Part shown: in pieces, positions 1-8,182 of the stretch | Layout: each line of letters opens with the position of its first letter | Position numbering within the stretch: the stretch's first letter is position 1 | Assembly: GCF_015351075.1 (NCBI RefSeq) | Contig: NZ_JADKRS010000002.1 | Location: 186,001-250,000, forward strand | DNA: 64,000 nucleotides | DNA from: Clavibacter sp. VKM Ac-2873 | Lineage (GTDB): Bacteria; Actinomycetota; Actinomycetes; Actinomycetales; Microbacteriaceae | Reading direction: 5' to 3' | Program-made: the position numbers and the translations under genes | The notes under the pieces: model-generated | Told to the model about the DNA's origin: nothing | Seen by the model: the letters and a program-made list of their open reading frames with translations, nothing else | Databases searched by the model: none

Positions 1-9
1 CAGGCCCAT

Positions 10-1032
10 GTGAACGGCGTGCTGGATGCGTTCTTCGCCCGCTCGCTCGTCCGGGCCGAGGTCATGGGCCCCGAGTACGTGAAGCTGTGGCGCACGCTCG
101 AGTCGAACACGGCGGGCGGCAAGCGGTTCCGGCCCCGCATGGTGATGGCCGCGTACGACGGCCTCGGCGGCCAGGACGTGCAGGCCGCGGCCCACGTCGG
201 CGCCGCGTTCGAGATGCTGCACACCGCGCTCATCGTCCACGACGACGTCATCGACCGCGACTTCACGAGGCGCGGCGGCCCCAACGTCTCCGGCGCCTAC
301 CGCGACATCGCCACCACGCAGGGCCTGCCCCAGCCGCTCGCCGAGCACCGCGGCATGTCGGCCGCCGTCATCGCTGGGGATCTGGCGCTCGTCAACGCCT
401 ACCGCCTGATCGACGCGAGCGGCGTGCGCGACCTGACGCGGGCGCACCTCCTGGAGATCCTCGACGACGCCGTGTTCGCATCGGCCGCGGGCGAGCTCAT
501 CGACGTCGAGTTCTCGCTCACCGCGGACGTGCCGAGCGTCGACGAGATCCTCCGCATGGAGCGGCTCAAGACCGCCGTGTACTCGTTCGAGGCGCCGCTG
601 CAGGCGGGCGCCGTGCTCGCCGGCGCGAGCCCCGCGATCGTCTCGGCGCTCGGCGACTTCGGCCGCGACATCGGCATCGCCTACCAGGTGGTCGACGACG
701 TGCTCGGCGTCTTCGGCGACGAGCAGGAGACGGGCAAGACGAACCTCGGCGACCTCCGCGAGGGCAAGCGCACCGTGCTCATCGCGCACGCCGTGCGCTC
801 GTCGGAGTGGGGCGAGATCAGCGCGCTCGTCGGCAAGGACGACCTCTCCCGCGGCGAGGCGGCGCTCGTCCGCTCGGTGCTGGAGAGCTCGGGCGCCCGG
901 GCCTTCGCCGAGGGCGTCGCGCGGGACCTCGCGGTCGCCGCCGTCGCGCGCCTCGACGATCCCGTCGTGCCGGAGGCGCTCCGCCGGGAGCTCGCGCCCG
1001 TCGCGGAGTCCGTGCTCGGGCGCATCCGATGA
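10..1032 (+). CDS. crtE: Geranylgeranyl diphosphate synthase (polyprenyl synthetase)
   Basis: Makes the C20 precursor GGPP by condensing isopentenyl diphosphate onto allylic diphosphates, the entry step of carotenoid synthesis in the cytosol. The family motifs are clear: GGKRFRPR at residues 36-43, first Asp-rich motif DDVID at 78-82, and second Asp-rich region VVDDVLGVFGDE around 227-238 followed by TGK and DLREGKRT. The second motif is the DDxxG variant that I recall from actinobacterial GGPP synthases. The start used is GTG at 10. The frame is open to the window edge, so the true start could lie upstream. A TGA at 11-13 in another frame would overlap this GTG as GTGA, suggesting coupling to a preceding gene, perhaps idi. 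The stop overlaps the crtB start (ATGA). 340 aa is near family length. Confidence 0.93.
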   Translation: MNGVLDAFFARSLVRAEVMGPEYVKLWRTLESNTAGGKRFRPRMVMAAYDGLGGQDVQAAAHVGAAFEMLHTALIVHDDVIDRDFTRRGGPNVSGAYRDIATTQGLPQPLAEHRGMSAAVIAGDLALVNAYRLIDASGVRDLTRAHLLEILDDAVFASAAGELIDVEFSLTADVPSVDEILRMERLKTAVYSFEAPLQAGAVLAGASPAIVSALGDFGRDIGIAYQVVDDVLGVFGDEQETGKTNLGDLREGKRTVLIAHAVRSSEWGEISALVGKDDLSRGEAALVRSVLESSGARAFAEGVARDLAVAAVARLDDPVVPEALRRELAPVAESVLGRIR

Positions 1033-3689
1033 CGCGTCGCCTCCCCGGCCGCCGGCCCGCCGCCCCCGAGGAGCCCACGGGCCTCGAGAAGTACGACCGC
1101 GTGGCGCAGGAGACGGCCTCCGTCGTGATCCGCCGCTACTCCACCTCCTTCGGCCTGGCGTCCCGGCTGCTCGGCGCCGACGTCCGCCAGCACATCGAGA
1201 ACGTGTACGCGCTCGTGCGCGTGGCCGACGAGATCGTCGACGGCGCCGCGGCCGGTGCCGGCGTGGATCCCGCGCACGTCGAGGAGCTGCTCGACGCGCT
1301 GGAGCAGGAGACCGAGGACGCCATGCTCCGCGGCTACAGCACCAACCTCGTCGTGCACGCGTTCGCGATCACGGCCCGCCGCGCGGGCTTCGGCGCCGAG
1401 CTCACCGCGCCGTTCTTCGCCTCCATGCGCATGGACCTGCGCCGGATGGAGCACACGCCCGCGTCCTTCACGGAGTACGTGTACGGATCCGCCGAGGTCG
1501 TCGGACTCATGTGCCTGCGCGCGTTCCTGGTCGGCCACGCGACGACGCGGCCGGAGCGGATCCGCTTCGAGGAGGGCGCCAAGCGCCTGGGCGCCGCGTT
1601 CCAGAAGGTCAACTTCCTGCGCGACCTCGCCGCCGACCACGGCGCGCTCGGCCGCAGCTACTTCCCCGGCGTCGACGTCGCGAGCTTCTCCGAGGCCGAC
1701 AAGGAGCGCATCCTCGACGACATCGACCACGACCTCCGCATGTCCGGCGCCGTGATCCCCGACCTCCCCGCCTCCAGCCGCCGCGCCGTCGCGCTCGCCC
1801 AGGGCCTGTTCGCCGAGCTCGCCGTCCGCCTGCGCGACACCCCCGCGTCCGAGCTCGTGCGCACGCGCGTTCGGGTGCCGGATCCGGTCAAGGCCCGCAT
1901 CGCGCTCGCCGCCGCCGCGGGCGCCGAGCCGTCCGGGGTCGACGGCCGCCTCGTCCGCCGGTCGCGCGGACCCCGCGCGCACTCCGCCCGCCCGACCCCC
2001 GCGTTCCGTGATCTCGCCGTCCGCCCCGCCCCGACCGAGCCCGCCCCGACCGAGCCCGCCCCGTCCGACCCCGAGCAGCAGGAGAGCGCCATGACCGCAC
2101 CCACCGCCATCGTGATCGGCGGCGGGATCGCCGGCCTCGCCTCCGCGGCGCTCCTCGCCCGCGACGGCTACCGCGTCACCCTCGTCGAGGGCCGCGACGA
2201 GGTCGGCGGCCGCGCGGGCTCCTGGGAGAGGGACGGCTTCCGCTTCGACCTCGGCCCCAGCTGGTACCTGATGCCCGAGGTGTTCGACCACTTCTTCCAT
2301 CTGTTGGGCACGAGCGCGGCCGAGCAGCTCGACCTCGTGCGCCTCCCGGGCTACCGCGTGCTCTTCGAGGGCGACCCCGACCCCATCGACATCCGCGACT
2401 CCCGCGAGGCGAACCTCGACCTGTTCGAGAGCGTCGAGCCCGGATCCCGCCCCGCCATGGCCCGCTACCTCGACTCCGCGAAGGACGTCTACGAGGTCGC
2501 GAAGAAGCGCTTCCTCTACACGACCTTCTCCGACTACCGGCCGCTGCTGAAGCGCGACGTCGTCACCCGCACGGGCACGCTCGCGAAGCTGCTGCTCACG
2601 CCGCTCGAGACGCACGTCGCGCGGTACGTGAAGGACCGGCGCCTGCGCCAGATCCTCGGCTACCCGGCCGTCTTCCTCGGCTCGTCGCCGAAGCTCGCCC
2701 CGAGCATGTACCACCTGATGAGCCACCTCGACCTCGAGGACGGCGTGCTCTACCCGCAGGGCGGCCTCATCACCGTGATCGACGCGATCGAGCGGGTCGC
2801 GCGGGCCGAGGGCGTCGAGATCCGCACGGGCGTGCCCGTCTCGCGCATCCTCACCGAGCCGACGACGGCCGGGAAGGCGCGGGCGCGCGGCGTGCAGATC
2901 ACGACCGACGCCGGCACCGAGACGCTCGACGCCGACGTGGTCGTCTCCACCGCCGACCTGCACCACACCGAGACCGAGCTCGTCCCCGAGGCGTTCCGCA
3001 CCTACCCGCAGTCCTACTGGGACAAGGCCACCGCCGGCCCCGGCGCGGTGCTCGTCTACCTCGGCGTCCGCGGCGAGCTGCCCGAGCTGCACCACCACAC
3101 GCTGCTGTTCACGGAGGACTGGGACGAGAACTTCTCCCGCATCTTCCCGCCGAAGGGCGGCACGACCTCGGTGCCGGATCCCGCGAGCATCTACGTCTGC
3201 AAGCCCAGCGCCACCGACCCGTCGGTCGCGCCCGACGGCCACGAGAACGTCTTCATCCTCGTGCCCATCCCGGCCGACCCGACCATCGGCCGCGGCGGCA
3301 TCGACGGCGCGGGCGACGCCCGTGTGGAGGAGATCGCCGACCGGGCCATCCAGCAGATCAGCGACTGGGCCGGCATCCCCGACCTCGCCGAGCGCATCGT
3401 CCTCCGCCGCACCTCGGGCCCCGGCGACTTCGCGGGCGACCTGCACTCGTGGAAGGGCACCATCCTCGGGCCCGCCCACACGCTCACGCAGTCGGCCATG
3501 TTCCGCGCCGGCAACACGAGCAAGAAGGTCGACGGGCTGCACTACGCCGGCGGATCCACCATCCCCGGCATCGGCCTGCCCATGTGCCTCATCAGCGCGG
3601 AGGTCCTCGTGAAGCGCCTCCGCGACGACACGTCGACCGGCCCGGGCGCCGTGCCGCTCGTGCGCACGGTCGGCCGCCCGGTGGTCTGA
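1029..3689 (+). CDS. crtB: Continuous CrtB-CrtI frame: phytoene synthase joined to phytoene desaturase
   Basis: Residues 1-about 320 are phytoene synthase, which joins two GGPP molecules into phytoene. YSTSFGLASRLL is at 37-48, and the two Mg-binding DxxxD motifs are DEIVD at 67-71 and DLAAD at 199-203. No stop codon follows. The frame runs through an Arg/Pro-rich stretch and a TEPAP-repeat linker straight into the CrtI desaturase, giving 886 aa in total. CrtB proteins normally end near 300-330 aa with their own stop. The ATG at 1029 overlaps the crtE stop. Two readings are possible: a true bifunctional fusion, or a CrtB read-through plus separate initiation of CrtI at ATG 2091, which has its own ribosome binding site. 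The domain assignment is secure; the physical form of the protein is not. Confidence 0.85.
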   Translation: MTRRLPGRRPAAPEEPTGLEKYDRVAQETASVVIRRYSTSFGLASRLLGADVRQHIENVYALVRVADEIVDGAAAGAGVDPAHVEELLDALEQETEDAMLRGYSTNLVVHAFAITARRAGFGAELTAPFFASMRMDLRRMEHTPASFTEYVYGSAEVVGLMCLRAFLVGHATTRPERIRFEEGAKRLGAAFQKVNFLRDLAADHGALGRSYFPGVDVASFSEADKERILDDIDHDLRMSGAVIPDLPASSRRAVALAQGLFAELAVRLRDTPASELVRTRVRVPDPVKARIALAAAAGAEPSGVDGRLVRRSRGPRAHSARPTPAFRDLAVRPAPTEPAPTEPAPSDPEQQESAMTAPTAIVIGGGIAGLASAALLARDGYRVTLVEGRDEVGGRAGSWERDGFRFDLGPSWYLMPEVFDHFFHLLGTSAAEQLDLVRLPGYRVLFEGDPDPIDIRDSREANLDLFESVEPGSRPAMARYLDSAKDVYEVAKKRFLYTTFSDYRPLLKRDVVTRTGTLAKLLLTPLETHVARYVKDRRLRQILGYPAVFLGSSPKLAPSMYHLMSHLDLEDGVLYPQGGLITVIDAIERVARAEGVEIRTGVPVSRILTEPTTAGKARARGVQITTDAGTETLDADVVVSTADLHHTETELVPEAFRTYPQSYWDKATAGPGAVLVYLGVRGELPELHHHTLLFTEDWDENFSRIFPPKGGTTSVPDPASIYVCKPSATDPSVAPDGHENVFILVPIPADPTIGRGGIDGAGDARVEEIADRAIQQISDWAGIPDLAERIVLRRTSGPGDFAGDLHSWKGTILGPAHTLTQSAMFRAGNTSKKVDGLHYAGGSTIPGIGLPMCLISAEVLVKRLRDDTSTGPGAVPLVRTVGRPVV
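2028..2072 (+). repeat. Three tandem 15-bp units in the CrtB-CrtI linker
   Basis: Units start at 2028, 2043 and 2058. The unit is GCCCCGACCGAGCCC; the third copy differs at a few bases. It encodes the proline-rich TEPAP-type linker between the CrtB and CrtI domains. Unit length is a multiple of three, so copy-number change keeps the frame and lengthens or shortens the linker. Confidence 0.85.
2091..3689 (+). CDS. crtI: Phytoene desaturase (CrtI), internal start within the CrtB-CrtI frame
   Basis: FAD-dependent desaturase that converts phytoene to lycopene at the membrane. From ATG 2091 it is 532 aa, the usual CrtI length. The N-terminus has the dinucleotide-binding pattern IGGGIAGLASAALLARDGY, then VEGRDEVGGRAG. 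The C-terminus carries the CrtI signature GLHYAGGSTIPGIGLPM. An AGGAG sits 7 nt upstream of ATG 2091, which supports independent initiation even though the frame is open from crtB. The stop at 3687-3689 overlaps the crtYe ATG. Enzyme family is certain; whether it is made alone, fused to CrtB, or both cannot be read from the DNA. Confidence 0.9.
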   Translation: MTAPTAIVIGGGIAGLASAALLARDGYRVTLVEGRDEVGGRAGSWERDGFRFDLGPSWYLMPEVFDHFFHLLGTSAAEQLDLVRLPGYRVLFEGDPDPIDIRDSREANLDLFESVEPGSRPAMARYLDSAKDVYEVAKKRFLYTTFSDYRPLLKRDVVTRTGTLAKLLLTPLETHVARYVKDRRLRQILGYPAVFLGSSPKLAPSMYHLMSHLDLEDGVLYPQGGLITVIDAIERVARAEGVEIRTGVPVSRILTEPTTAGKARARGVQITTDAGTETLDADVVVSTADLHHTETELVPEAFRTYPQSYWDKATAGPGAVLVYLGVRGELPELHHHTLLFTEDWDENFSRIFPPKGGTTSVPDPASIYVCKPSATDPSVAPDGHENVFILVPIPADPTIGRGGIDGAGDARVEEIADRAIQQISDWAGIPDLAERIVLRRTSGPGDFAGDLHSWKGTILGPAHTLTQSAMFRAGNTSKKVDGLHYAGGSTIPGIGLPMCLISAEVLVKRLRDDTSTGPGAVPLVRTVGRPVV

Positions 3690-4033
3690 TGGGCCTCGTC
3701 TACCTGGTGCTGCTGCTCGGCGCGCTCGGCTGCATGATGCTCATCGACCGGCGGTGGCGCCTGTTCTTCTGGCGCGACCGCACGGCGGCGATCCTCACGA
3801 CCCTCATCGGCGTCGCCTTCTTCCTCGCGTGGGACATCGCGGGCATCTCGCAGGGCATCTTCTTCCGCGGGGAGACGTCGTTCATGACGGGCATCCTCGT
3901 GGGGCCCGAGCTGCCGCTCGAGGAGGTCTTCTTCCTCACGCTGCTCTGCTACCTCACGATGAACCTCGTCAACGGGTTCAGCCGCCTCGCCGACCACCAC
4001 GTCGCCCGGGCCAGGGAGCGCGCGAACCGATGA
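3689..4033 (+). CDS. crtYe: Lycopene cyclase subunit, C50 carotenoid type (CrtYe/LbtA-like)
   Basis: Small integral membrane protein of 114 aa, one half of the heterodimeric lycopene cyclase of actinobacteria. In C50 pathways the two small subunits act together to form the end rings on the elongated chain. It has three hydrophobic segments and the family motif PELPLEE in the third, with acidic residues expected in the active site. The ATG at 3689 overlaps the crtI stop, and its stop overlaps the next ATG (ATGA), so the subunits are translationally coupled, as expected for a 1:1 complex. Ring type (epsilon, beta or gamma) cannot be decided from the sequence alone. Confidence 0.9.
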   Translation: MGLVYLVLLLGALGCMMLIDRRWRLFFWRDRTAAILTTLIGVAFFLAWDIAGISQGIFFRGETSFMTGILVGPELPLEEVFFLTLLCYLTMNLVNGFSRLADHHVARARERANR

Positions 4034-4398
4034 GCTACCTCGCGCTCGACGTGCTGTTCCTGATCCCCGTCGCGGTCGTCGGGTTCCTGTTCCGCCGCCT
4101 CCTGCTGCGCGAGGCGAACGCGGTGCCCTACGGATCCAGCCGCTTCGACTACCCCGAGTACTACTGGTACCGGCGGATGCCCGTCGTGATCCTGCTCGTG
4201 ATGACGCTGATCTTCGACAACATCATGATCAAGGTCGGCCTCGTCGGCTACGACGACGACAAGCTGGTGGGCCTCATCCTCGGCTACGCGCCCATCGAGG
4301 ACTTCGCCTACGCGATCGCCGCGCTCGTGCTGCTGCCCGCGGTCTGGTACCTGCTGCGCCGCCGCCGCAGCGTCTCCGGGATCGAAGCGCATGAGTGA
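4030..4398 (+). CDS. crtYf: Lycopene cyclase second subunit (CrtYf/LbtB-like)
   Basis: Partner of the preceding cyclase subunit, 122 aa with three hydrophobic segments. It carries the matching acidic motif PIEDF near residue 90, the counterpart of PELPLEE in CrtYe. Start ATG 4030 overlaps the crtYe stop by 4 nt; its end overlaps the crtEb start by 8 nt. The order crtYe-crtYf-crtEb is that of the decaprenoxanthin cluster of Corynebacterium and of Microbacteriaceae. Function as heterodimeric C50 cyclase is inferred from family and order. Confidence 0.9.
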   Translation: MSYLALDVLFLIPVAVVGFLFRRLLLREANAVPYGSSRFDYPEYYWYRRMPVVILLVMTLIFDNIMIKVGLVGYDDDKLVGLILGYAPIEDFAYAIAALVLLPAVWYLLRRRRSVSGIEAHE

Positions 4399-5287
4399 CG
4401 TGCGCGCGCGGCCCGGCGCCGCGGAGATGCTGCGCACCATCGCGCTCTCGTCGCGCCCGCTCTCCTGGGTGAACACGGCGTTCCCGTTCGCGGCCGCGTA
4501 CCTCACGGTGACGCGCGAGATCGACCTCACGGCGATCCTCGGCACCCTCTACTTCCTCATCCCGTACAACCTGGCGATGTACGGCATCAACGACGTCTTC
4601 GACTACGAGTCCGACATGCGGAACCCGCGGAAGGGCGGCGTGGAGGGCGCCGTGCTCGCGCGCGCCATGCACCGGCCGGTGCTGGTCGCGGTGCTCGTCA
4701 CGAACGTGCCGTTCCTCGCGTACCTCGTGGCCGTGGGATCCGCGGCGAGCCTCGCGGTGCTCGCCGTGAGCGTCTTCGCCGTGATCGCGTACTCGCTCAA
4801 GGGCCTCCGCTTCAAGGAGCGGCCGGTGCTCGACTCCCTCACCTCGAGCACGCACTTCACGTCCCCCGCGGTCTACGGCATCGTGCTCGCGGGCGGCGCG
4901 TTCACGCCCGCGCTGTGGGCGATCCTCGCGGCGTTCTTCCTGTGGGGGGTCGCCTCGCACGCGTTCGGCGCGGTGCAGGACATCGTGGCCGATCGCGAGG
5001 GCGGCATCTCCTCCATCGCGACCGTGCTCGGCGGCGCCGCGACCGTGCGCATCGCGGTGCTCGCCTACGCCGCGGCCGGGGTCGCGATGCTGTTCACCGG
5101 GCTGCCGGGGATCATCGCCAGCGTGCTCGTGATCCCGTACATCCTCAGCACCGCGCCGTTCTGGTCGATCCGCGACGAGGACGCGGGAGCCGCGAACCGC
5201 GGCTGGCGCCGCTTCCTCGGCCTGAACTTCCTGTCCGGCTTCGTGGTGACGATGCTCCTCATCGCGTACTGGCTCACGAACGCCTGA
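4391..5287 (+). CDS. crtEb: Lycopene elongase, UbiA-family prenyltransferase
   Basis: Adds C5 prenyl units to both ends of lycopene, giving the C50 skeleton. UbiA superfamily membrane protein of 298 aa with about eight hydrophobic segments. The Asp-rich substrate motif NDVFDYESD is at residues 67-75, and a second acidic region (VQDIVADREGG) lies near residue 197. It is the last gene of the crt run and overlaps crtYf by 8 nt. The end product is therefore a cyclic C50 carotenoid, consistent with yellow-orange Microbacteriaceae pigments. Behind it the base composition changes abruptly at the restriction-modification pair. Confidence 0.93.
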   Translation: MSDVRARPGAAEMLRTIALSSRPLSWVNTAFPFAAAYLTVTREIDLTAILGTLYFLIPYNLAMYGINDVFDYESDMRNPRKGGVEGAVLARAMHRPVLVAVLVTNVPFLAYLVAVGSAASLAVLAVSVFAVIAYSLKGLRFKERPVLDSLTSSTHFTSPAVYGIVLAGGAFTPALWAILAAFFLWGVASHAFGAVQDIVADREGGISSIATVLGGAATVRIAVLAYAAAGVAMLFTGLPGIIASVLVIPYILSTAPFWSIRDEDAGAANRGWRRFLGLNFLSGFVVTMLLIAYWLTNA

Positions 5288-5375
5288 CGCATCCGGGGCC
5301 AGCGATCTCGGACGGTCGTCCGGGGACGCGCGGGCCCTCCCAAACTAAGTCGTCTGCTCTCGGTATGGTGTCCGC

Positions 5376-7058
5376 ATGAGTTGGGCTCCGAGGCTGAAGA
5401 TGGCGACCCTTCCGCAGGCGGCCTCAGAGTTCGAGCAGGCGCTCGCATCGATGCGGCCGTGGTGGGCCGCTCGTGTCGAGAAGGCTGGACTTCCCGCGGC
5501 GTGGGCCGACCTCGACCATGCACTCGACGCCCGCCCGCCCGCGCCCATTCCGGCGACGACATCGCTCGAGATCGCATTAGACAGCTGGGCCCTTGGCACG
5601 CAGTACGTCGGCACCCTCGATTCTCACGTGCGCTCGGAGCATGGTCGTCATTACACCCCGCGCGATCTCGCCGAGCGCCTTTGGGCGATGCTGCGTGACG
5701 CCCTCAAATTTGGTGCCGACCCTCACGCTATGCCGGGACTCATTCGCGACCCAGCCGTCGGCGCGGGTGCGCTTCTTATCCCTGTTCTTCGGGAGCACCT
5801 AAAAGCCAGCGAATCCGTCGACCCAGTGCTCGTCCTCCGCTCGCTGCCGAACTTCATCGAGGGTCTCGATAACGATCCTTGGGCTGTTTATCTGGCGAAT
5901 GTCACGCTCGCCGCCGAAATGCTGCCGACTCTCGCGCGAGTATCCGAAAACTTGCGGCGTCCGCTTCCCTCGCTCGCTCGAATCGGTGACGGACTTGCGG
6001 CCGACCTTCCTCCCGCACACTCGTGGATAATGAATCCGCCGTACGGCCGTCAGCGTCTCACGACGGAACGTCGCGAGCAATTCATCGACACCCTCTACGG
6101 GCACGCGAATCTTTACGGCATGTTCATGGCCTCGGCCCTCGACAAGACTCACGCCGACGGCGCGATTGCCGCACTAGTCCCGACGAGCTTTGCATCCGGG
6201 CTTTACTTCCATCGCCTCCGACGGCAGTTGAGCGAGCGCACACCCCTTCGATCTCTCGCATTCGTTCACCAGCGGAACGGTGTCTTCGGGGGAGTGCTAC
6301 AGGAGACGTGTCTCGCTGTCTTCACCGCCCGACGCGGACGGCGAGTCGAGATCACCCGCGTGAATGGCTCCGTGGCCCGGGTTGCGTCTGTCCCGACTCC
6401 TCGCACTAGTGAACCTTGGCTTCTACCCCGTGAGTCGTCTGATGCCGCATTAGCCGCCGTCGCAGCTTCACTTCCCAACACATTAAGTTCCGCTGGTTGG
6501 CATGCTTCGACAGGGCCGCTCGTATGGAATCGCCGTCGCGAGGACCTGTACCGGCGTTCCGCTATCGATCGCAGTCACATCGTGTGGGCGGCCGACATCG
6601 ACGACGGGAAAGTCGGCCGGAACGCAAAGCGCAACACGATGCGTTACCTGAAGCTCCATGGCCTCGCTGATCAGAAGACAATGTCCCTCTCTGCTCCTGC
6701 CATTCTCGTTCAGCGGACGACCGCCCCCGAGCAGACGCGCAGACTAGTAGTAGCGGAGCTGACTCAGGTGGAACTGGATCGGTTGGGCGGAAGCGTGGTC
6801 ATCGAGAATCACCTCAACGTCCTGAAGCCGACCCACGTTGCTCCGCTCGTGTCGCGCGCCACTCTCGCCGCTGTCTTGGCGTCGCGGGTCTTCGATCGAC
6901 TCATGCGCTGTATCTCCGGCTCCGTCGCGGTGAGTTCGTATGAACTTGCGGCGCTGCCGCTGCCCGACGCAGAGACGCTCAACTCGTGGGAAGGGCTCAC
7001 AGGCGAAGAACTTGAAAGAGCCATTGAGCAAGCGTATTCCGTGAGGCCGAGGCCATGA
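5376..7058 (+). CDS. N6-adenine DNA methyltransferase of a type II restriction-modification pair
   Basis: Protective methylase, 560 aa. Motif X-like region GRHYTPRDLAERL is at 90-102, SAM-binding motif I DPAVGAG at 125-131, acidic motif II region EGLDNDPWAV at 162-171, and catalytic motif IV NPPYG at 220-224. NPPY marks an amino-methyltransferase of the adenine class. The C-terminal half contains IENHLNVLKP, typical of target-recognition regions in related methylases. The ATGA overlap with the next gene pairs it with a PstI/BsuBI-type endonuclease. Base composition is clearly lower in GC than the flanking genes, with codons ending in A or T that neighbours avoid, a sign of recent transfer. 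No strong ribosome binding site is visible before ATG 5376, so the start is moderately sure. Confidence 0.88.
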   Translation: MSWAPRLKMATLPQAASEFEQALASMRPWWAARVEKAGLPAAWADLDHALDARPPAPIPATTSLEIALDSWALGTQYVGTLDSHVRSEHGRHYTPRDLAERLWAMLRDALKFGADPHAMPGLIRDPAVGAGALLIPVLREHLKASESVDPVLVLRSLPNFIEGLDNDPWAVYLANVTLAAEMLPTLARVSENLRRPLPSLARIGDGLAADLPPAHSWIMNPPYGRQRLTTERREQFIDTLYGHANLYGMFMASALDKTHADGAIAALVPTSFASGLYFHRLRRQLSERTPLRSLAFVHQRNGVFGGVLQETCLAVFTARRGRRVEITRVNGSVARVASVPTPRTSEPWLLPRESSDAALAAVAASLPNTLSSAGWHASTGPLVWNRRREDLYRRSAIDRSHIVWAADIDDGKVGRNAKRNTMRYLKLHGLADQKTMSLSAPAILVQRTTAPEQTRRLVVAELTQVELDRLGGSVVIENHLNVLKPTHVAPLVSRATLAAVLASRVFDRLMRCISGSVAVSSYELAALPLPDAETLNSWEGLTGEELERAIEQAYSVRPRP

Positions 7059-8182
7059 ACGTGTTCCTACCCACCGTCTCCGTTGACGTCGCTGCCCAGC
7101 GACTCGGTCTCATTTTCCCAATCCTTAGCTTTGATACGACTCTCAGTAACGCGCTTGCGGCGCATGCGCTGCGCGCCTTGATCTATGTGGGAGCCGTTCA
7201 CGACAGTGACGGCGACGCCGAGCAGGCATTCATGCGGCCCTCAATGGCACTGTGGCTGAGTGACGACGCTGCTTCTCACGTCACTGAGGAGGAGCGTCGC
7301 TCCTGGCACGCGGCAGCGTCCCGCTCCGCCGTAGCAGTCGCGCGACTGGAGGCAGAATGGGGGATTACGTTCCGGCCCGGGTACGCGGAGAACACGCGCG
7401 AATCACTGCGCGAGACTCTTGACGGTTGGCTAGAGTACGGCGCGCTCCTTCAGCGAAGCGGCATCGCGAATAACTATCCGGGTCCACGGTGGCAGCTGAC
7501 TCGCGAGTTCGCCGCACTTTTCGATCCCTCCTTGAGCGGCAACAACCTCGCTGCCGCAATCGGATCTTGGGTACTGGATCATATGAGCGCACTCGGCCGC
7601 TACCGTTCGCAGGCCGTGCGTCAACTGGCTCAGGAGGCTCACGCAGTCGATGTGGTGCTCCCCGGCGGGCGACATCGTCAGTTGACGCCTGGCGACGCGT
7701 CGCGCATTTTGAAGGGAGTCGTTGAGGACTGGGCGCCGCGGAAACTACACACGCCGCGCGTGCTCACAATTTCGGAGCCTGGTGATCAAATTTTCGTCGC
7801 CGATGCGAAGACTCTCAGCCAGATCGGTATGGAGATCGACCAATCGTCGCTTCTCCCTGATTGCTTGATCGTCGATATTGGAGCTTCACCCGTCGAGCTT
7901 TGGCTAATAGAGGCCGTTGCGACGGATGGCGTAATCACTGAGCGGCGTAAGTCTGAATTCATATCATGGGCCGCATCGCAGGGCATCCCATCAGCATCGT
8001 GCCGCTTCATGACCGCATTCGTTTCCCGGAACTCCCCGATAGCCAAGCGTCGTCTGAAAGACCTCGCATCCGAGACCACTGCTTGGTTCTTGAATGAGCC
8101 CGAGCATGAACTAAAATGGTCCATTATCGATAGGACCGGATACGTTCCCGTGCTCGCGGTCGTAACGCCGATCGACGGCTAG
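7055..8182 (+). CDS. Type II restriction endonuclease, PstI/BsuBI family
   Basis: 375 aa. The C-terminal part matches the BsuBI/PstI endonuclease domain as I know it: LPD at 267-269, LIEAV at 284-288, then G at 292 and an Arg pair at 297-298. That LPD...LIEAV...G...R pattern holds the presumed metal-binding acidic residues. The N-terminal part fits the helical region that precedes this domain. Family members PstI and BsuBI cut CTGCAG and their methylases modify adenine, which agrees with the NPPY methylase encoded 4 nt upstream; the actual specificity here is unproven. Lower GC than the chromosome, like its partner. Start ATG 7055 is fixed by the overlap. Confidence 0.82.
   Translation: MNVFLPTVSVDVAAQRLGLIFPILSFDTTLSNALAAHALRALIYVGAVHDSDGDAEQAFMRPSMALWLSDDAASHVTEEERRSWHAAASRSAVAVARLEAEWGITFRPGYAENTRESLRETLDGWLEYGALLQRSGIANNYPGPRWQLTREFAALFDPSLSGNNLAAAIGSWVLDHMSALGRYRSQAVRQLAQEAHAVDVVLPGGRHRQLTPGDASRILKGVVEDWAPRKLHTPRVLTISEPGDQIFVADAKTLSQIGMEIDQSSLLPDCLIVDIGASPVELWLIEAVATDGVITERRKSEFISWAASQGIPSASCRFMTAFVSRNSPIAKRRLKDLASETTAWFLNEPEHELKWSIIDRTGYVPVLAVVTPIDG

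What the first reader, a model, noticed from the sequence alone, without database searches (positions are those of the whole stretch)
1029..3689. crtB and crtI form one uninterrupted reading frame joined by a TEPAP-repeat linker
No stop codon separates the phytoene synthase and phytoene desaturase domains; both starts (1029 and 2091) are in the same frame. The link is Pro-rich and made of three 15-bp direct repeats (2028-2072), and CrtI keeps its own AGGAG and ATG. If translated through, this is an 886-aa bifunctional enzyme that would channel phytoene; if not, the cell makes CrtI by internal initiation and the fused form as well. Loss of the stop by repeat-related rearrangement is an inference.
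Basis: partly seen in the sequence, partly recalled or inferred. Interest (0 to 1): 0.72.

Follow-up and report, generated by a model that had tools for sequence, protein, structure and literature searches.

The report
Two carotenoid enzymes fused, start kept
In most of the Clavibacter genomes examined, the genes for two consecutive pigment enzymes are joined into one long gene, yet the second enzyme's own start signal is kept letter for letter, so one gene may make both a fused enzyme and a free one.

Summary
In detail: window 1029-3689 (+) is one open frame of 886 codons, phytoene synthase then CrtI, with AGGAG (2080-2084) and ATG (2091) inside. It is not a sequencing accident: 16 of 18 genomes of the genus have the fused frame, over linkers of 126-174 nt. 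The other two are split at an ATGA overlap; one of them (G007) has frameshifts in rpoB and crtE and is doubtful. Of 135 split loci in the order, 111 have a 4-bp ATGA/GTGA overlap, so fusion probably arose by a frame change, not by the 15-bp repeats. Rathayibacter and a third genus are fused too, apparently independently, without an internal ATG. Clavibacter differs: 79 nt around the CrtI start (2065-2143) are identical in 18 of 18 genomes; the next longest such run in the compared crtB and crtI stretches is 32 nt. Best reading: a real crtBI fusion with a selected internal start that also yields free CrtI. No protein was tested. A crtBI annotation is published for Rathayibacter toxicus (PMC5552033, passages).

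The parts
10..1032 (+). crtE, polyprenyl (GGPP) synthase; its stop overlaps the crtB start as ATGA
   Evidence: ORF 10-1032, PF00348 E 1.4e-52
1029..3689 (+). fused crtBI open frame, 886 aa
   Evidence: one stop-free frame in 16 of 18 genomes of the genus
1128..1880 (+). phytoene synthase domain (SQS_PSY, residues 34-284)
   Evidence: mostly confident helices in the model
1959..2093 (+). low-confidence (probably disordered) Pro/Ala/Thr-rich linker, residues 311-355, pLDDT below 50
   Evidence: length varies in the genus
2028..2072 (+). two exact and one imperfect 15-bp repeats (APTEP APTEP APSDP)
2065..2143 (+). 79-nt block identical in 18 of 18 Clavibacter genomes, from -26 to +52 about the CrtI ATG
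   Evidence: single full-length copy in the own genome
2080..2084 (+). Shine-Dalgarno-like AGGAG of crtI
2091..3689 (+). CrtI reading frame with its own ATG, 532 aa (phytoene desaturase family)
   Evidence: TIGR02734, E 4.7e-165 for the whole protein, residues 360-875
3689..4033 (+). probable crtYe (TGATG overlap with crtBI)
   Evidence: no Pfam match at 1e-5, named by position
4030..4398 (+). probable crtYf, lycopene cyclase type
   Evidence: PF18916 E 8.4e-08
4391..5287 (+). probable crtEb, UbiA-type prenyltransferase
   Evidence: PF01040 E 6.9e-26

Best explanation
crtBI is a genuine gene fusion of the genus. Ribosomes starting at 1029 read through a flexible linker and make an 886-aa enzyme that joins two GGPP into phytoene (CrtB part) and desaturates it (CrtI part). 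A second set of ribosomes starts at the AGGAG/ATG at 2080-2093 and makes free CrtI of 532 aa, so that CrtI exceeds CrtB. Shown: the frame, its conservation, the two domains, the invariant start region. Inferred: that both proteins are made, and that the excess of CrtI or the tether is what selection keeps. Origin (inferred): from an ATGA overlap, by a change of linker length that put the two frames in register.
For: 16 of 18 genomes fused. Linkers of 126-174 nt, all divisible by 3 in the 16; no length difference in the 780 nt of crtB compared in 18, nor in crtI in the 16. 79-nt invariant run in 18 of 18; next longest in the compared stretches 32 nt. Degenerate codons with invariant amino acid: 8 of 8 at the linker end (16 fused) and 16 of 16 at the crtI start (18) never vary, against 333 of 625 elsewhere in crtB and crtI. 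Control starts crtB, crtYe, crtYf, crtEb: 52, 54, 60 and 49 of 79 positions invariant. Contrast: fused Rathayibacter (n=13) has no such block, longest run 5 nt. Model: two mostly confident domains, linker pLDDT below 50.
Against: No protein, ribosome or transcript evidence. The block runs 52 nt into crtI, more than a ribosome site needs. Short parts of it are not unique: 10 of 2198 body windows of 27 nt are as invariant as -15..+11, 79 of 2198 as -27..-1, and 53 of 2150 windows of 51 nt as -33..+17; one 17-codon body window reaches 0.93 invariant degenerate codons. The 16 were chosen for being fused; over all 18, at least 12 length changes are needed and two genomes are out of frame. Many changes are 15-nt steps that keep the frame whatever the selection. 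A CCC-C, a possible +1 slip site (recalled), lies in the linker of 15 of 16 fused genomes.
Confidence: 0.58

Rival explanations
1. Obligate fusion only: one 886-aa protein; the 79-nt block is kept for another nucleotide-level reason (a regulator or RNA site), or as a relic.
For: Rathayibacter and the third genus are fused with no internal ATG, so fusion alone seems to work there; the block is longer than a ribosome site.
Against: The block contains AGGAG plus ATG and is the same in the split G002 and G007. RNA fold of 2046-2153 z +0.57; the only Rfam hit up to E 1 in window 1-6000 lies elsewhere; no sigma-70-type site in 1-6000 (other promoter types not covered). A relic would hardly stay invariant.
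Confidence: 0.22
2. Mainly separate proteins: the linker is cut by a protease, or a +1 slip ends crtB at the TGA at 2092 and crtI starts there.
For: In the four fused genomes sampled the +1 frame ends exactly at the TGA of the ATGA. A CCC-C, a codon context recalled as prone to +1 slips, stands at the same linker codon in 15 of 16 fused genomes. Disordered linkers are protease-prone.
Against: The CCC-C encodes a conserved Pro-Arg and may mean nothing; G003 lacks it. Keeping the zero frame would be of little use if most ribosomes slipped.
Confidence: 0.14
3. Sequencing or assembly error erased a stop.
For: Such errors exist here: G007 has frameshifts in rpoB and crtE.
Against: 16 assemblies of the genus agree.
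Confidence: 0.01
4. The fused frame is neutral drift of a dispensable C-terminal tail; CrtI comes from its own start and the fusion is a by-product.
For: Linker sequence and length are variable; the conserved element is the start; G002 does without the fusion.
Against: One frame kept in 16 of 18 genomes over a length-variable linker, including at least 4 changes of length modulo 15 among the 16.
Confidence: 0.05

Closest known systems
crtBI 'bifunctional phytoene synthase/oxidoreductase' of Rathayibacter toxicus (PMC5552033, passages)
   Same: one crtBI gene in a cluster with crtEb, crtYf, crtYe and crtE, as listed in the passage
   Different: the 13 fused Rathayibacter loci read here have no ATG from 150 nt before to 8 nt after the junction motif and no invariant start block; the rpoB tree puts the genus apart from Clavibacter
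crtIBY trifunctional fusion of thraustochytrids (PMC10016063, abstract and passages; PMC5924542, search listing)
   Same: phytoene synthase and desaturase in one chain
   Different: order I-B-Y, with a cyclase, in protists
Fungal phytoene synthase fused to a CrtYcd-type cyclase (mentioned in PMC2889829, passages)
   Same: natural fusion of a phytoene synthase
   Different: other partner domain
Genes with a long form and an internally started short form, such as infB and cheA (recalled, no call)
   Same: one frame, two starts
   Different: second product not demonstrated here; here the long form is a two-enzyme fusion

Membership tests
phytoene synthase (SQS_PSY) | family profile above cut-off | tested here: met
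   PF00494 116.6 bits, cut-off 26; NCBIfam CrtB equivalog models match only below their cut-offs
phytoene synthase (SQS_PSY) | two DxxxD motifs (motif recalled) | tested here: met
   DEIVD and DLAAD read in the translation
CrtI phytoene desaturase | family profile above cut-off and N-terminal GxGxxG (motif recalled) | tested here: met
   TIGR02734 550.1 bits, cut-off 238.1; GGGIAG
CrtI phytoene desaturase | desaturation of phytoene to lycopene | not testable with these tools
   no assay
natural crtBI fusion | both domains in one stop-free frame in related genomes | tested here: met
   16 of 18 genomes
natural crtBI fusion | a single chain is made in cells | not testable with these tools
   no proteome held
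dual-product gene by internal initiation | in-frame start with a Shine-Dalgarno-like word | tested here: met
   AGGAG 2080-2084, ATG 2091
dual-product gene by internal initiation | start region conserved beyond the protein sequence | tested here: met
   24 of 24 degenerate codons invariant against 333 of 625 elsewhere
dual-product gene by internal initiation | short product observed | not testable with these tools
   needs mass spectrometry or ribosome data

The most novel reading that the evidence does not exclude
Clavibacter crtBI is a dual-output gene: selection keeps at once a read-through frame (fused CrtB-CrtI) and a 79-nt invariant internal start (free CrtI), setting enzyme ratio and tethering in one cistron. 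A frame change in the length-variable linker can return it to the ATGA arrangement, as in G002.
Probability: 0.5. Interest if true: 0.58.

Novelty: new variant of a known kind. Interest (0 to 1): 0.5.

Why it matters
Fusion of CrtB to CrtI seems to have arisen at least three times in one order (Clavibacter, Rathayibacter, one unnamed genus), which hints at a selected benefit of tethering the two enzymes. Of the three, only Clavibacter keeps an internal ATG with a Shine-Dalgarno word, so it offers a natural case in which the value of a fused against a free enzyme could be measured. It also suggests how a 4-bp gene overlap can turn into a fusion by a small frame change.

Tried and rejected
Considered and rejected: repeat-driven loss of the stop (whole 15-bp units keep the frame; the ATGA/GTGA overlap is the common state); a homogenised second copy of the block (one full-length match in the own genome, next match 31 of 85 positions, 42.8 bits); an RNA element (fold z +0.57; one Rfam hit at E 0.55 elsewhere in window 1-6000); an internal sigma-70-type promoter (0 found in 1-6000).

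Failures and dropped rows. The overlap tally was wrong (script index error, everything fell into 'other'); the tally used is. Scripts 47 and 50 failed and were corrected as 48 and 51. In one search, 5 of 11 Arthrobacter loci were skipped because the motif search missed them. In one search, L017 and L018 (second pieces of G002 and G007) and L021-L030 (weak matches) were left out; its 164 loci hold some genomes twice (unnamed handles and named records). In one search, 24 of 135 split loci had no 4-bp overlap, and 9 of the 111 could not be scored for Shine-Dalgarno words. One search lists 150 of its 167 matching genomes (my count from the E-values); the other 17 were not examined. In one search, 146 of 175 loci remained after removing identical pairs.

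Full report
WHAT IS THERE. Window 1029-3689 (+) is an uninterrupted frame of 886 codons. Residues 34-284 match squalene/phytoene synthase (PF00494) and residues 360-875 the phytoene desaturase family (TIGR02734). ATG 1029 overlaps the crtE stop as ATGA, and the frame ends at 3687-3689 with a TGATG junction to the next gene. The operon reads crtE, crtBI, probable crtYe, crtYf and crtEb (crtYe by position only). By sequence, solved relatives include a gamma-carotene desaturase (4rep) and a phytoene dehydrogenase (4dgk) for the CrtI part and a phytoene synthase (5iys) for the CrtB part.

IS IT MORE THAN CHANCE. Long open frames are cheap at this base composition, so I compared relatives. A search of the 18 genomes of the genus gave one stop-free match of residues 1-886 or 1-885 in 16; in two, G002 and G007, the match lay in two pieces. 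The genus is named through four records whose contig lengths equal those of G004, G006, G013 and G016; all four are titled Clavibacter. Between the anchors used the 16 fused genomes have linkers of 126, 129, 141, 144, 150, 159, 162, 165 or 174 nt, all multiples of three; the 780 nt of crtB compared have one length in 18 genomes and crtI has one length in the 16 (the crtI pieces of G002 and G007 were cut by the locus end). On a tree from crt genes plus rpoB the 16 need at least 10 length changes; a separate count of length modulo 15 gives at least 4. Because 15-nt steps keep the frame by themselves and the 16 were picked for being fused, this is moderate evidence only. Over all 18 at least 12 length changes are needed, and two genomes are out of frame.

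THE TWO EXCEPTIONS. In G002 and G007 crtB ends at a TGA that overlaps the crtI ATG (ATGA). G007 is a single contig listed at 92% completeness. Its rpoB lies in two frames, residues 1-1146 and 1143-1301 of the window genome's frame, and its crtE is split between two frames, so its crtBI split is doubtful. In G002, 11 of 12 conserved open frames of the 19-kb neighbourhood are whole and only crtBI is broken (some of the 12 may be antisense shadows). G002 falls in a group with G007, G014, G015, G016 and G017, of which the last four are fused; support for the group is 100 in the rpoB and combined trees but 51 in the crt tree, and its closest relative differs between trees (support 89, 63 and 42). 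The frame state needs two changes on the combined tree, so a return to the split state in G002 is the simplest reading.

THE COMMON STATE AND OTHER FUSIONS. In 164 loci examined 135 were split and 29 fused, with some genomes counted twice. Of the 135, 111 have a 4-bp ATGA or GTGA overlap. Of 199 family genomes 167 had matches, and 150 of these were listed (my count). Outside Clavibacter 43 listed genomes had an open frame of at least 800 codons; all 43 were read: 3 fused, all in genus g45, and 40 split. Two of the three share contig lengths with records titled Rathayibacter. In that genus 13 of 15 genomes have both genes on the stretch read, and all 13 are fused; G217 and G224 could not be judged. 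In an order-wide sample 54 of 119 genomes matched; 14 with frames of at least 800 codons outside Clavibacter were read, 1 fused (G296) and 13 split. In the genus of G296, 32 of 38 genomes matched; of the 10 with such frames 3 are fused (G296, G348, G366) and 7 split. One search counts a TAG inside the G348 match; the stops of that frame lie well before the junction and after CrtI. The rpoB tree of 28 genomes separates Clavibacter plus its split neighbour genus g71 from the rest, Rathayibacter included, with support 98. In the CrtB+CrtI tree the Rathayibacter fusions form a separate clade (1.0), but g71 next to Clavibacter is weak (0.565). The third genus is in another family by the tool's kinship table and was not in the rpoB tree. 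At least three origins is therefore an inference.

THE INTERNAL START. The 79 nt from -26 to +52 about the CrtI ATG are identical in 18 of 18 genomes; the next longest invariant run in the compared stretches (780 nt of crtB, 36 nt of linker, 1530 nt of crtI) is 32 nt. Shorter pieces are less exceptional: 10 of 2198 body windows are as invariant as -15..+11, 19 of 2204 as 0..+23, 79 of 2198 as -27..-1, 392 of 2186 as -33..-1. Of degenerate codons with invariant amino acid, 8 of 8 at the linker end (16 genomes) and 16 of 16 at the start of crtI (18 genomes) never vary, against 119 of 232 in crtB and 214 of 393 in crtI codons 18-510; the most invariant 17-codon window of the body reaches 0.93. 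Other starts of the operon are not special: 52 (crtB), 54 (crtYe), 60 (crtYf) and 49 (crtEb) of 79 positions invariant. The block is the same in the split genomes, where crtB is read through it in another frame, so the constraint appears to be on the nucleotides. In 13 fused Rathayibacter loci there is no such block (longest run 5 nt; four-fold differences 0.30 at the motif, 0.34 in the body), no ATG from 150 nt before to 8 nt after the junction motif in 13 of 13, and no GTG at the motif in 3 of 13. In split Cryobacterium (13 loci) and Arthrobacter (6 of 11 loci) the longest runs are 5 and 7 nt; Arthrobacter shows a milder dip just before the motif (0.19 against 0.45). These genera are more diverged, which weakens the comparison. 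The three fused loci of the third genus have no ATG in the 200 nt before CrtI; the GTG at the motif follows no clear Shine-Dalgarno word. Of 102 scored split loci with a 4-bp overlap, 26 carry a Shine-Dalgarno match of 5 or more nt, G002 and G007 among them, so the word as such is not peculiar to Clavibacter.

STRUCTURE. A model from 64 sequences has mean pLDDT 84; both domains are mostly confident, 311-355 is below 50, and one further short stretch (815-824) and the ends are low too, which fits a flexible tether. pTM is 0.63, so the relative placing of the domains is not known.

HOW IT PROBABLY WORKS. Read-through yields a fused synthase-desaturase; internal initiation yields extra CrtI. CrtI acts several times per phytoene, so an excess of CrtI with one copy tethered beside the synthase would make sense (inference from pathway knowledge). 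The reach of the invariant block into crtI is not explained by ribosome binding alone. A +1 slip at the CCC-C found in 15 of 16 linkers, which would end crtB at the ATGA, is not excluded.

LITERATURE. R. toxicus has an annotated 'crtBI, bifunctional phytoene synthase/oxidoreductase' (PMC5552033, passages). Searches: Clavibacter with crtB, crtI and carotenoid (0 papers); carotenoid enzyme fusions; crtIB; Clavibacter with carotenoid biosynthesis and phytoene (14 papers); Rathayibacter and phytoene (2); crtBI (20); Clavibacter and phytoene desaturase (17); Microbacteriaceae with fused genes. No title or abstract start that I saw describes the Clavibacter fusion; of the listed papers I opened passages of PMC2889829, PMC10016063, PMC11577799 and PMC5552033 only. 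Subscription papers are mostly not held.

Noticed in passing
window 2065-2143: The 79-nt block invariant in 18 of 18 Clavibacter genomes extends 52 nt into crtI, further than a ribosome site should need; reason unknown.
   Followed up: partly
L200, L230 (genome G007): Single-contig genome with frameshifts in rpoB and crtE; probably an assembly with indel errors.
   Followed up: partly
window, linker codon 19 (CCC before CGC, in GGA CCC CGC): A CCC-C stands at the same linker codon in 15 of 16 fused genomes; its meaning is unknown.
   Followed up: partly
L133: A contig labelled Vibrio cholerae strain 35D carries crtB and crtI with a junction like those of the Arthrobacter loci; probably a contaminant.
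   Followed up: no
window 5376-8182: N6 adenine methylase and BsuBI/PstI-type restriction endonuclease genes directly downstream of the carotenoid operon.
   Followed up: no
L266, L284, L285: A third, unnamed genus has crtBI fusions with a long Pro/Ala-rich linker in 3 of 32 matching genomes.
   Followed up: partly
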